Assembly: GCF_030160015.1 (NCBI RefSeq)
Contig: NZ_BSNN01000002.1
Coordinates: forward strand, 62,001-126,000
Length of the DNA: 64,000 bases
Reading direction: 5' to 3'
DNA from: Amylibacter marinus
Lineage (GTDB): Bacteria > Pseudomonadota > Alphaproteobacteria > Rhodobacterales > Rhodobacteraceae
In this document: positions 3,526-38,599 of the stretch, in pieces
Layout of the letters: every line of letters starts with the position of its first letter
Numbering within the stretch: position 1 is the stretch's first letter
Program-made: the position numbers and the translations under genes
The notes under the pieces: generated by a model
The model's database searches: none
What the model saw: the letters and a program-made list of their open reading frames with translations, nothing else
Told to the model about the DNA's origin: nothing

Positions 3526-4671
3526 CTAGGCCAGCGCATCTTTGATCTGAAGGTGTTGTGCGATATCACCCACCTCTTGCATCCACATGGCAATCAAGCT
3601 TGGATCTGAAGGGGCGGCGTGCACGCCGCTGTCAATCTCGCCGCGCAGAACCGCCTCGATTGCCAAAGACAATGGCACCGAGACCAGCTTTGCCATGGCT
3701 GTGCCATTCTGATCCCCCCATGCATCCATCACATAGGTTTTAGAATAAGCGGGAACTCCATCTTTGCGAGCAGTTAGTTCCACGCACATAACCACGCGGT
3801 CGGGTTCGTTTTCTCCGTAGGCGTTATCGGCCCAGAATTGATCCGACATTTCCTTTAGGCGGGCATCGCCCTCTGGGCCGCTTAGAGTCTCTATTTCACG
3901 AAACACATCGCCCCATGCATGGGCCCAGCCCTGTAGGCGAAGCGTACCCCGTACAAATGTTTGAACTGGCCAACGGGGGTCAAAATTATATTCGGCAATG
4001 AAGGGGAGGCTGTTTCGATTTGGATATACCTCAAACTCTTCGGACTGGGGTAGGGGGGCGTCATAGGTGCTGATGGCATCCCAAGGGCGGCTGGCGTGCC
4101 ATTCTTGGCCATCTTTGATAGATTTTGAGGGCGAACGCAGGGCCGTTAAAACGCCCAAGGGAGACCAGCTGAATTTATATCGGAAATCATTGGGTATTTT
4201 GGGGACACCGCCGCAATAGGATCGAAATGTGATCTCATTATCCACACCATAGCCCGCACTGGCCTTGTAATCCGCAACCAAATGGTGTGCCATCAAATGA
4301 TCAATGCCGGGGTCTAGGCCGACCTCGTTGATCAAGGTTACACCGGCCTCCGTAGCGCGGGAATTTAGCGCAGACATTTCTGGGGAGATATAGGACGAGG
4401 ATGCGAAATGCGCCCCTGCATCGATACAGGCGCTTGCTATTTTAACATGCCATGCGGCGGGCAGCATAGAAACGGCTATATCCCCCGAGTTTAGTGCGGC
4501 GACGAATCTATCAAAATCAAAGACACGGATATCATCGGTAATGTCCCCCACGGCGGCAATGGCCTTGTCTATGCTTCTGTTCCAAACGACCAGAGTGTGG
4601 CCATTTTCTATCAATCGGCGCAGTCCGGGGATTGCGGAAAGGCCGGTACCTATCCAATGAATGGTTGCCAT
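3526..4671 (-). CDS. Saccharopine dehydrogenase/reductase (LYS9-like)
   Basis: A 381-residue protein of the saccharopine dehydrogenase (glutamate-forming, LYS9-type) family. The N-terminal Rossmann segment (IGTGLSAIPGLRRL) binds NAD(P); the signature GLDPGIDHLMAHH around residues 117-129 is typical of the saccharopine reductase fold. In lysine breakdown this enzyme splits saccharopine to glutamate and aminoadipate semialdehyde. It lies directly downstream of, and abuts, a lysine-forming saccharopine dehydrogenase gene, so the pair encodes the bifunctional LKR/SDH activities of animals and plants as two separate proteins. The ATG at 4669-4671 directly follows the upstream stop. Direction in vivo (catabolic) is inferred: alphaproteobacteria make lysine through diaminopimelate. 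Confidence 0.8.
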   Translation of the reverse strand: MATIHWIGTGLSAIPGLRRLIENGHTLVVWNRSIDKAIAAVGDITDDIRVFDFDRFVAALNSGDIAVSMLPAAWHVKIASACIDAGAHFASSSYISPEMSALNSRATEAGVTLINEVGLDPGIDHLMAHHLVADYKASAGYGVDNEITFRSYCGGVPKIPNDFRYKFSWSPLGVLTALRSPSKSIKDGQEWHASRPWDAISTYDAPLPQSEEFEVYPNRNSLPFIAEYNFDPRWPVQTFVRGTLRLQGWAHAWGDVFREIETLSGPEGDARLKEMSDQFWADNAYGENEPDRVVMCVELTARKDGVPAYSKTYVMDAWGDQNGTAMAKLVSVPLSLAIEAVLRGEIDSGVHAAPSDPSLIAMWMQEVGDIAQHLQIKDALA

Positions 4672-36455: not shown

Positions 36456-37187
36456 TTATTTTGTGCTCTTGCGAATTGAAACAGCGTAACGCCCAGGTTT
36501 TTGACTTGCCTTGGTTTCGTTGTCTCTAACGGTGTTCAGATATTTCTGCCAAGGAAAGATATCCTCATTATCCCTGTCCATCTCGATAATTTCCCCCTCA
36601 GATAAGACACTGCCATAAGACTCTTTTAAAACCGGCTGAATTTGAAAGAGAGGCTTGTTCATGGGGATATAAATTTCTCGATTTGTGGCGTTCAGTTTTA
36701 TATTTATAAACAAGGGAAGCGGATTAAATCGATCTGTTTCCACCAACCCTTCGAAACACGAAAATGAGCTTCGCACATCAAAGTTGGAAACAGGTCTGAT
36801 TAATGTGCTCCAACCAGGATTGGTTTCTAAGAAATAACCAGACCATATCTGAACCATCCCGGGTACAAACAGCTCTGTAAGAAAGGGTGGATCTTTTTCT
36901 TCGAGATTCTCAGGCGCAAGACTGGCCCAGTGTTCGCGGAACTCTGCTTCAAAATTGGTGGATTTCATCGGAAACCATTGCCCATCTTGGAAGAAGAAGA
37001 CCTCTTTTCCATCAAAATTTAGGTGTATGTCCTTGGGCGGAAAGACATGCCAACCATAGGAAGATGCAACTCTCATAGCCTCGCAGTATTGAAAGGCCGC
37101 TGCGGGCATGGTTCCTAGGCCCGACTTATCAGCGCGAATGATGTTTGGTGCATTTTTATAACATTTGAAAAATCTAAAAACGGACAA
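36456..37187 (-). CDS. DUF6065 family protein
   Basis: A 243-residue protein that I recognise as DUF6065 from its conserved N-terminal block: IIRADKSGLGTMPAAAFQYC, then ASSYGWHVFPP, and the later PPFLTELFVPGMVQIWSGYF and TNPGWSTLIRP. It has no signal peptide or membrane segment. The start is a TTG at 37187 with AAGGAT upstream; the next ATG would remove the conserved RADKS block, so TTG is preferred. The biochemical role of the family is not known to me. It lies 49 bases after a tiny gene for a duplicated peptide, in the same direction, with a hairpin between. That arrangement resembles a precursor peptide followed by its processing or modifying protein, which is inference. Confidence 0.75.
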   Translation of the reverse strand: MSVFRFFKCYKNAPNIIRADKSGLGTMPAAAFQYCEAMRVASSYGWHVFPPKDIHLNFDGKEVFFFQDGQWFPMKSTNFEAEFREHWASLAPENLEEKDPPFLTELFVPGMVQIWSGYFLETNPGWSTLIRPVSNFDVRSSFSCFEGLVETDRFNPLPLFINIKLNATNREIYIPMNKPLFQIQPVLKESYGSVLSEGEIIEMDRDNEDIFPWQKYLNTVRDNETKASQKPGRYAVSIRKSTK

Positions 37188-37210
37188 CAGGCAATCCTTG
37201 TTAAATGGCC

Positions 37211-37228
37211 CCTCTGGTTCCCCAGAGG
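37211..37228 (-). promoter_or_regulatory. Hairpin between peptide gene and DUF6065 gene
   Basis: A 7-bp perfect stem (CCTCTGG / CCAGAGG, 4-base loop) lies in the 49-base gap. It is not followed by a T-run on the minus strand, so it is more likely a partial attenuator or mRNA 3'-end stabiliser than a true terminator; it could make the peptide transcript more abundant than the downstream one. Confidence 0.5.
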
Positions 37229-37236
37229 AGACATAT

Positions 37237-37374
37237 TTATTTATTCAATACGATTGGCGCGATGCCGCCACCGGTGGAAACTTTGGCTGTGTTCAAGACA
37301 ATCGGTGCAATTCCACCGCCAACTGACACTTTTGATTGCGCAAGTACGGTTACAGTTTTGTTAGGCTTCGTCAT
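37237..37374 (-). CDS. 45-residue duplicated peptide, candidate precursor peptide
   Basis: A small gene. The ATG at 37374 is preceded by a near-perfect AAGGAG seven bases upstream. The peptide has a short head (MTKPNKTVTVLAQS) and then two 14-residue copies of KVS[V/T]GGGIAPIVLN (residues 15-28 and 31-44) joined by Thr-Ala and ending in Lys. Comparing the two copies codon by codon, 11 of 14 differ only synonymously, two are identical and one changes Val to Thr. Such a pattern means the amino-acid sequence has been kept while the DNA diverged, which strongly supports coding. It is the first gene before DUF6065 and follows a LuxR-type regulator. I suggest a RiPP-like or signal peptide; no known family was recognised. 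Confidence 0.8.
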   Translation of the reverse strand: MTKPNKTVTVLAQSKVSVGGGIAPIVLNTAKVSTGGGIAPIVLNK

Positions 37375-37445
37375 AAGATAACTCCTTCATTGTTACGACA
37401 TCTTCACTTTCTATGAACATGTCTGGCGAGATAAAATACAATGAG

Positions 37446-37466
37446 TTAACGCTTGGGTAGTGTTAA
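37446..37466. promoter_or_regulatory. Candidate LuxR-type operator upstream of the peptide gene
   Basis: A 21-base imperfect dyad with arms TTAACnCT and AGnGTTAA sits 72 bases before the peptide ATG, in the gap between the LuxR-type gene and the peptide gene. Length and position fit a lux-box-like target of the neighbouring regulator; a TATTTT element downstream may be the -10. Inference only. Confidence 0.4.
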
Positions 37467-37545
37467 ATTTCACATTAAAACTGGAATTCTATTGTTCCAA
37501 CGCGTTTTAAATGCGCAACATCAATTAGTTCCGCCCTTTTTGTGT

Positions 37546-38286
37546 TTAGAACTGCCCTTGTTCTTTAGCCAATAAAACAGCGTGTAAGGTGTTATTAGCC
37601 CCTAGTATATCTCTTGCGTTTGCCATGCGTTGATCGATTGTCCGATGGTGGCAACCCTCTATTTCCGAAATCTCTGAAACCGTCCGCCCCTCTGCAATCA
37701 GTTTCATGAAGTGGATCGTTCTCGTATCTAGTTTTTGACCCGAGGGAATGTTCTCGAACTGAGCGATTGTTAGGTCAAATATACAAAGTAAGGCAGTAAG
37801 GTCGGATTCATTGTTCTTCCATGTTTCGTCGGCGTCTTCCTGGGTGCCATCGGCACGAAATGCCATCCCGAAAGCGGAACGGTAGCGGCGGGTATGGGTA
37901 GGTACAGAATAGGTGACCCCAGCATTCAGTCCACATTGGCGGCCCTTCTCATAGGCATCCATTTGCTCAGGGGTCAATTTGCCCGCATCGGCGCGGCGCT
38001 TAGTTTCTCCCCAGCTGATGCATCCATAATTATACATGGCCCATTGTAGTGTTGGGCTGTGTAAATAAAGCCGTGAGAGTAAAAACTCTTGATCAAGTTT
38101 TTCGCCATAAGACGAGAGAAGAACCGATCCAGAATGGTTGTGAAGGGTTTCGGGGCTAAAATTTAACTTTTTCCCATATAGAACCCGATCAAAACCAAAT
38201 GAGGCAAGTGCATCTAGCAGAATTGCCCAATTTGTTGCGACATCATTCGATTGCGTGAGCTTTTGAATAAATCTGTTGATTAACAT
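37546..38286 (-). CDS. LuxR-family solo regulator with autoinducer-binding domain
   Basis: About 246 residues from the ATG at 38286; an upstream in-frame TTG at 38379 would add 31 residues but has no ribosome-binding site, and 246 fits the family. The N-terminal half is an autoinducer-binding domain (ALASFGFDRVLYG, then a Trp/Tyr-rich pocket segment LYLHSPTLQWAMYNYG). Where TraR-type proteins carry the Asp-Pro that contacts the acyl-homoserine lactone, this one has Ser-Pro, so the ligand may differ. The C-terminal helix-turn-helix is TVSEISEIEGCHHRTIDQRM. No luxI-type synthase is in the window, hence 'solo'. It precedes the duplicated-peptide gene in the same direction and is its likely regulator. 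Confidence 0.8.
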   Translation of the reverse strand: MLINRFIQKLTQSNDVATNWAILLDALASFGFDRVLYGKKLNFSPETLHNHSGSVLLSSYGEKLDQEFLLSRLYLHSPTLQWAMYNYGCISWGETKRRADAGKLTPEQMDAYEKGRQCGLNAGVTYSVPTHTRRYRSAFGMAFRADGTQEDADETWKNNESDLTALLCIFDLTIAQFENIPSGQKLDTRTIHFMKLIAEGRTVSEISEIEGCHHRTIDQRMANARDILGANNTLHAVLLAKEQGQF

Positions 38287-38599
38287 ATATCCAATGTCCT
38301 GATCCTGGGTATCAGTTACAATCTGGGGTCGTAGCTGCAAGTTGGCTCTCTGATATCTTAGGCGCTCTGTATTGGTCAACGCTACTTGTGCAAGGCCAGA
38401 TCGAGCGGCCTCTTAGGATCATTTGAGAGCGGTGTTTTTTTCCACTAACGGATATGAATGTGCCGTCGGTTAAACGATGTATATGCTGTAAAATGCACAT
38501 GTCCGCGTAAATATGCCCGCTGAGATAAGGTGGATGTATTGATTACTTGGCAGAGCGTTGCAATTTGGATAAACCACGCGAAAATCGAAAGGCAATCAA

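What the first reader, a model, noticed from the sequence alone, without database searches (positions are those of the whole stretch)
37237..37374. Tiny gene for a tandemly duplicated peptide, candidate precursor of an undescribed RiPP or signal
Seen directly: a 45-residue peptide with two 14-residue copies of KVS[V/T]GGGIAPIVLN behind a strong AAGGAG site. The two copies differ at 11 of 14 codons by silent changes only, one change alters an amino acid, two codons are identical. That is selection on the peptide itself after an old duplication. It sits beside DUF6065 and a LuxR solo, in an AT-rich cassette. Repeated cores next to a conserved protein of unknown role are a hallmark of modified-peptide systems. 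Inference: DUF6065 acts on, exports or senses the peptide.
Basis: partly seen in the sequence, partly recalled or inferred. Interest (0 to 1): 0.92.

Follow-up and report, generated by a model that had tools for sequence, protein, structure and literature searches.

The report
Repeated-peptide gene paired with DUF6065
A tiny bacterial gene makes a peptide with the same short motif in tandem, and related repeated peptides sit directly before the same uncharacterised protein (DUF6065) in many alphaproteobacteria, which points to an undescribed kind of peptide system.

Summary
Observation confirmed, on the minus strand. The 45-residue ORF holds two 14-residue copies; 11 of 14 codons differ silently, 1 changes the residue, 2 are identical. 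In 80 loci fetched by DUF6065 sequence alone, a sense frame with two or more V-x-L-G-G-like units lies within 1 kb upstream in 54, one false hit removed; by eye 15 more have a one-unit, missed or masked peptide, 7 show none, 4 lack upstream DNA. So do 9 of 9 further loci and the window, against 0 of 36 DUF6065 loci outside this clade. Core type follows the DUF6065 tree: 11 changes, shuffled mean 38. No paper in the library names DUF6065 or seven core strings. A BTAD-TPR regulator lies near 44 of 80 loci; the window has a LuxR instead, found at no other locus held. Best reading: a tandem-core precursor whose units DUF6065 binds and processes or modifies, giving a regulatory or signalling peptide. 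The coupling is shown; the chemistry is inferred.

The parts
37237..37374 (-). Tandem-unit peptide gene, 45 aa plus stop (TAA 37239-37237)
   Evidence: codon test
37291..37332 (-). Unit 1, KVSVGGGIAPIVLN (residues 15-28)
37243..37284 (-). Unit 2, KVSTGGGIAPIVLN (residues 31-44)
37382..37387 (-). AAGGAG ribosome-binding site, 7 nt before the ATG
   Evidence: read directly
36456..37187 (-). DUF6065 gene (243 aa), TTG start, AAGGA at 37199-37195; most divergent member of the peptide-linked clade
   Evidence: PF19541 39 bits; 30-38% identity to clade members; very long branch
37205..37234 (-). Hairpin between peptide and DUF6065 genes (CCTCTGG GGAA CCAGAGG core), no T-run; role unknown
   Evidence: fold z -1.31, not significant
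37546..38379 (-). LuxR-type regulator with autoinducer-binding domain, upstream on the same strand; local companion, not seen at other loci

Best explanation
The window holds a small, divergent example of an undescribed two-gene peptide system. Gene 1 encodes a precursor without an obvious secretion signal: a short variable N-terminus followed by 1 to about 18 near-identical units, general form D-x-G-[KR]-[VI]-[RKHST]-[LIVMT]-[GA]-[GAN]-x-[SAR]-[PL]-x-[FLVI]; the last unit nearly ends the protein. Gene 2, a clade-specific DUF6065 protein, binds each unit and processes or modifies it, so that one precursor yields several copies of a short peptide with a regulatory, signalling or secreted role. 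Shown: the units, selection on their amino-acid sequence, constant placement just upstream of DUF6065, and the match between core type and DUF6065 lineage. Inferred: that DUF6065 acts on the unit (Cys35, Asn135 and Asp152 as candidate active-site residues), that units are released, and what the product does.
For: (a) 54 of 80 loci found by DUF6065 sequence alone have strict tandem units within 1 kb upstream in sense, 15 more by eye (not blind); 9 of 9 further loci and the window; 0 of 36 non-clade DUF6065 loci; downstream in sense 0 of 78; 6 of 426 distant 1-kb strand pieces. (b) Adjacent units in the other loci differ by 368 silent and 66 replacement codons of 1676 (D-anchored units, no identity filter; 404 and 78 of 1740 with a filter of 7 of 10 identical residues). 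(c) In 62 of 64 loci with strict units at most 8 residues follow the ninth residue of the last unit. (d) Core type needs 11 changes on the DUF6065 tree; shuffled mean 38.2, minimum 32 of 200. (e) In 47 DUF6065 proteins found by profile, without any residue pattern, Cys35 is Cys in 45 of 45 aligned there (2 gaps), Asn135 in 47 of 47, Asp152 in 43 of 47. (f) Non-clade DUF6065 is fused to a Cupin_8/JmjC-like domain in one protein and to SapC in two, and on a Sinorhizobium medicae plasmid lies about 2.8 kb from a protein resembling the Os1348 NHLP-clan peptide precursors (36.9 bits, cut-off 40). (g) An MFS transporter follows DUF6065 in L005, L006, L007 and L127 (Pfam on two of them). (h) A named case: Rhizobium sp. 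WSM4643 plasmid, 'hypothetical protein' with three VHIANKSP units before 'DUF6065 family protein'.
Against: No fold for DUF6065: structure prediction was off, the PDB profile search gave nothing under E 0.4, and a dUTPase-like idea failed its control. No Ser/Thr/Cys is conserved in the variable part, so common RiPP chemistries are not indicated. Seven clade loci with upstream DNA show no peptide (L054, L055, L056, L060, L102, L124, L126). Some precursors have one unit only. Most loci have no dedicated exporter in the part seen. The detector is not free of noise: it also scores 1 of 36 non-clade loci downstream in sense and 3 of 36 downstream in antisense. The Cys could be structural. The window unit has lost the D-x-G part. 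The Os1348 match is below its cut-off and a single case.
Confidence: 0.55

Rival explanations
1. Unmodified peptide pheromone: units are cut out by a housekeeping protease, exported and re-imported, and read by the BTAD-TPR regulator (or, in the window, by the LuxR); DUF6065 is a carrier, chaperone or immunity-like binding protein.
For: BTAD-TPR regulator near 44 of 80 loci with the BTAD part covered, 47 by any hit; by any hit 23 of 33 loci with at least 4 kb on both sides, in three geometries: 29 upstream opposite strand, 16 downstream opposite strand, 2 downstream same strand. TPR proteins of the Gram-positive Rap/NprR/PlcR/PrgX group are peptide receptors (start of the abstract of PMC3601965, listing). 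LuxR directly upstream in the window.
Against: No regulator hit in 10 of 33 loci with full flanks nor beside the window peptide; 14 of 15 precursors checked have N-termini less hydrophobic than both signal-peptide controls, L099 being the exception (crude); no dedicated peptidase; peptide receptors of this type in Gram-negatives are not established (recall).
Confidence: 0.2
2. Multivalent scaffold: the unit is a docking motif for DUF6065 that is never released; copy number sets how many DUF6065 molecules gather on one chain.
For: The most constant part is a short beta-like segment [KR][VI]x[LIVM]G; copy number varies widely (1 to 18); spacers vary within one genus.
Against: The precursor nearly always ends at a unit (62 of 64), and the part after the glycine is also conserved within lineages (LGNMSPAF in one genus), as expected of a product; single-unit precursors do not gather anything.
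Confidence: 0.2
3. Chance ORF with an accidental internal repeat.
For: Peptide is short and has no match above a cut-off in Pfam or NCBIfam.
Against: Silent-only divergence (0 of 200,000 simulations), and related tandem peptides at the same place in dozens of genomes.
Confidence: 0.01

Closest known systems
Multi-core RiPP precursors (cyanobactins, graspetides such as plesiocin; recalled)
   Same: One short precursor with several similar cores and short constant flanks, next to a conserved partner gene.
   Different: No YcaO, ATP-grasp, LanB/C/M, radical SAM or MNIO family among the 25 commonest neighbour families displayed; no conserved Ser/Thr/Cys core residue; modification untested.
RRNPP-type peptide signalling of Gram-positives (Rap, NprR, PlcR, PrgX)
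   Same: Small peptide gene near a TPR-containing regulator in about half of the loci.
   Different: The regulator has a BTAD/SARP-like part, most precursors checked lack a secretion-signal-like start, DUF6065 has no counterpart (recall), hosts are alphaproteobacteria.
Os1348/NHLP-clan RiPP precursors (NF038399)
   Same: A DUF6065 gene lies near such a protein on one S. medicae plasmid.
   Different: The window peptide and four other precursors tested do not match the model.
RiPP clusters reported in Acetobacteraceae (PMC8776678; 11 passages found by search seen)
   Same: Same host family as many of the loci here.
   Different: The passages list DUF692, linocin M18, lasso, azol(in)e and cyanobactin-like clusters; they mention no DUF6065, and the word 'repeat' does not occur in the main text.

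Membership tests
RiPP | Short ribosomal precursor encoded beside a conserved partner | tested here: met
RiPP | Recognised modifying enzyme in the locus | tested here: inconclusive
   None found: window neighbours tested are DUF6065 and LuxR; none among the top 25 of 61 families in 97 of 164 candidate neighbour proteins of other loci; the other families and proteins were not seen
RiPP | Post-translationally modified mature product | not testable with these tools
   needs mass spectrometry
Multi-core precursor | Two or more near-identical cores | tested here: met
   window 2 units; others up to 18; some loci have one
RRNPP-type signalling | TPR-containing regulator adjacent to the peptide gene | tested here: inconclusive
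   44 of 80 loci have the BTAD-TPR protein; the window does not
RRNPP-type signalling | Secretion signal on the pro-peptide | tested here: not met
   hydrophobicity of N-termini, 14 of 15 below both controls, crude test
LuxR/LuxI quorum sensing | Cognate luxI at the locus | tested here: not met
   two LuxI homologues in the genome, at C2:650435 and C3:23210, far from this locus
DUF6065 (PF19541) | Match above the curated cut-off | tested here: met
   window 39 bits against 26.6; 55 of 55 members of A3 match the family at E 1 or better
dUTPase-like beta-clip fold | Profile similarity beyond shuffled controls | tested here: not met
   clade score reached by 37 of 60 column shuffles, classic group by 5 of 60
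Anti-phage defence | PADLOC match | tested here: not met
   0 families for 5 proteins

The most novel reading that the evidence does not exclude
DUF6065 founds a new class of peptide-tailoring or peptide-binding proteins that act on tandem V-x-L-G-G units, and with the BTAD-TPR regulator forms a peptide-signalling circuit in Gram-negative alphaproteobacteria, where LuxR took over the regulator's place in the window's lineage.
Probability: 0.2. Interest if true: 0.95.

Novelty: new variant of a known kind. Interest (0 to 1): 0.8.

Why it matters
It gives a protein family of unknown function (DUF6065) a concrete candidate substrate and a testable assignment. It opens a genome-minable family of tandem peptides in Acetobacteraceae, Roseobacter-type bacteria and Rhizobium; in the one annotated record examined the peptide is called 'hypothetical protein'. 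If the products are signals, it would put a peptide circuit in bacteria thought of as users of small-molecule signals.

Tried and rejected
1. dUTPase-like fold for DUF6065 (from recall of motifs): 37 of 60 column shuffles reached the clade's hhalign score and 5 of 60 that of the classic group; dropped.

2. LuxR as a conserved partner: not found at any other locus then held. LuxR is also absent within the fetched 1.5 kb of pyrE in 11 of 11 relatives examined; an empty-site comparison failed because nrdJ does not lie within those flanks.

3. Homologue of the locus in the genus: DNA found in 1 of 41 genomes, DUF6065 clade in 1 of 33, each time the window's own. Phage records: no match for the window DUF6065.

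4. Terminator or attenuator between peptide and DUF6065: a hairpin is there, but fold z is -1.31 and there is no T-run. Promoter scan: 1 site where shuffles average 4.1; no evidence.

5. Pfam Aconitase_2_N match of the peptide, E 0.03, below its cut-off, and weak NCBIfam matches of two other precursors, far below their cut-offs: treated as chance.

6. TldD/PmbA near some loci (8 of 80 plus L008): suggestive of peptide proteolysis, but TldD neighbourhoods may be conserved for other reasons (recall); not used.

7. Strict detector: its hit in L125 is a membrane-protein frame and was removed; a one-unit peptide was then seen there. L009 and L051 are the same contig; L009 was dropped from counts. 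L034 was left out of the non-clade count.

8. Residue conservation in the joint alignment is partly circular: rows were picked with patterns that touch Cys35, Ala41, Gly147 and Asp152. I therefore repeated it on 47 profile-found proteins and cite that. The silent/replacement count was limited to unit pairs with 7 of 10 identical residues; one search repeats it without that filter. The regulator count of 47 includes 3 loci (L079, L084, L097) without a hit on the BTAD part; 44 remain.

9. Paper searches; two papers were opened for passages (PMC13252029, not relevant; PMC8776678), all others were seen as listings. The library lacks most subscription journals.

Full report
Observation. The ORF is real and lies on the minus strand, 37374 to 37237. 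It has an AAGGAG site 7 nt before its ATG. The two 14-residue copies differ at 12 codons, 11 silently, with 12 of 14 nucleotide differences at third positions; 0 of 200,000 random placements of the same number of substitutions kept the amino acids as well. The next gene on the same strand is DUF6065 (PF19541, 39 bits), read from a TTG with AAGGA upstream. The gene before it, same strand, is a LuxR-type regulator. The three genes form the lowest-GC stretch of the window, 44.2% against 51.1%.

I searched PF19541 in 394 genomes of the family: 19 match at E 0.001, 17 over the cut-off. A DUF6065-based pattern scan of named genomes gave 195 relatives, of which the best 80 were kept; many titles name Acetobacteraceae or Rhodospirillales (Elioraea, Roseomonas, Rhodopila, Acidisphaera), one Sulfitobacter algicola. 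A class-wide search added four strong loci. The rule was fixed: two or more V-x-L-G-G-like hits in an open sense frame, 6 of 10 identical residues, within 1 kb upstream of the match. With it 55 of these 80 score. One of them (L125) is a false hit, so 54. By eye, and not blind, another 15 have one unit, two units that the rule missed, or an array partly masked by N: L052, L057, L073, L082, L085, L086, L087, L090, L092, L096, L097, L104, L107, L122, L125. Seven show none and four have under 200 nt upstream. The same rule gives 9 of 9 further genome loci (L005-L008, L010, L022-L025), the window itself, 0 of 36 DUF6065 loci outside the clade, 0 of 78 downstream in sense, and 6 of 426 distant strand pieces. 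Against this: downstream of the non-clade genes it scores 1 of 36 in sense and 3 of 36 in antisense, and the antisense strand of the upstream kilobase scores in 13 of the 90 clade loci. I take the latter as reverse reading of the same repeats but did not check each.

The unit. Across loci the unit mostly reads D-x-G-[KR]-[VI]-R-[LIM]-G-[GAN], then a variable part: GVAPALKP (Elioraea), GMAPSLKP, GFAPTLAT, GGIRLPVK, NMSPAFKV, NKSPAF (Roseobacter-type and Rhizobium), NSGMKTAKVPADLR (L010), GLQRAI (Roseomonas), and in the window GGIAPIVLN. Copy number runs from 1 to 18. In one genus the part LGNMSPAF is kept while spacers and copy number differ. Adjacent units in other loci differ by 368 silent and 66 replacement codons. 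In 62 of 64 loci with strict units the protein ends within 8 residues of the ninth residue of the last unit.

DUF6065. The peptide-linked proteins form one group with the window protein as its most divergent member. In a FastTree run all 60 clade rows, including four and one Rhizobium, group together with support 0.80, and the window row has a very long branch; its exact place inside is unsure. Clade and classic DUF6065 are homologous (hhalign probability 98.6). Among 47 proteins found by profile, without residue patterns, Cys35 is kept in 45 of 45 that align there, Asn135 in 47 of 47, Pro179 in 46 of 47, Asp152 in 43 of 47. Outside the clade DUF6065 is fused to Cupin_8 (L044) and to SapC (L026, L035). 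On a Sinorhizobium medicae plasmid it lies near a protein resembling Os1348 NHLP-clan precursors, just below the model's cut-off. Near-copies inflate such clustering.

Neighbours. A regulator with a BTAD domain and TPRs is near 47 of 80 loci by tblastn, 44 with the BTAD part covered. By the wider count it lies upstream on the other strand in 29, downstream on the other strand in 16, downstream on the same strand in 2, and in 23 of 33 loci with at least 4 kb on both sides. It is commonest with the RLP-type cores, 24 of 28 by the wider count. A YeiH-like membrane protein is near 14 loci, a GDSL-like lipase near 8, TldD near 8, and MFS near L005, L006, L007 and L127, all with VHIANKSPAF units. 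Of 164 candidate neighbour proteins 97 were scanned; the 25 commonest Pfam families of 61 contain no known RiPP enzyme; the other 36 were not displayed. The LuxR is at the window only. The clade is patchy: 1 of 33 genomes in the window's genus, 9 of 25 in the order of G559, 2 of 398 in a phylum-wide sample at E 1e-10, of which one is the window and the other a weak partial match.

Mechanism. What is shown is a coupled pair: a precursor with conserved units and its own DUF6065. The simplest account is that DUF6065 recognises the unit and processes or modifies it. The conserved Cys is a candidate but may be structural. Rivals are an unmodified pheromone read by the BTAD-TPR protein, and a scaffold on which DUF6065 gathers. 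I could not model the fold; PDB sequences gave nothing under E 0.4; the dUTPase idea failed.

Novelty. DUF6065, PF19541 and seven core strings (ANKSPAF; six more) occur in no paper of the library; the library lacks most subscription journals, so this is not proof of absence. A survey of Acetobacteraceae gene clusters lists other RiPP types in the passages I saw (PMC8776678). Public annotation names the Rhizobium example 'hypothetical protein'. NCBIfam has no match over a cut-off for the window peptide or for four other precursors. I file it as a new variant of tandem-core peptide systems; membership in RiPPs is open because modification is untested.

Noticed in passing
L044, L026, L035: DUF6065 outside the clade is fused to a Cupin_8/JmjC-like domain or to SapC, so DUF6065 may more generally be a substrate-binding part of peptide- or protein-tailoring proteins.
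   Followed up: partly
L169:773-1087 and 3890-4597 (S. medicae plasmid pMl1): A DUF6065 gene about 2.8 kb from an Os1348 NHLP-clan-like protein, with amidohydrolase, S8 peptidase and methyltransferase genes nearby: a possible second peptide cluster type.
   Followed up: partly
L193-L210: 18 contigs labelled viral carry relatives of the clade DUF6065, 15 of them within 2 kb of a contig end; a unit-like peptide is visible upstream in 9 of 18. Probably host DNA beside integrated elements, not checked.
   Followed up: partly
window 37205-37234: Hairpin with GGAA loop between the peptide stop and the DUF6065 start; could set different levels of the two proteins, but the fold is not significant.
   Followed up: partly
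window 36456-38379: Lowest-GC stretch of the window, between nrdJ and pyrE, and DUF6065 clade present in 1 of 33 genomes of the genus: likely acquired.
   Followed up: partly
L052, L068, L098, L107: Runs of N inside or beside the repeat arrays: masked or broken stretches, so copy numbers there are uncertain.
   Followed up: no
G000 contigs C2:650435 and C3:23210: Two LuxI homologues elsewhere in the window's genome; whether either signals to the LuxR here is unknown.
   Followed up: no
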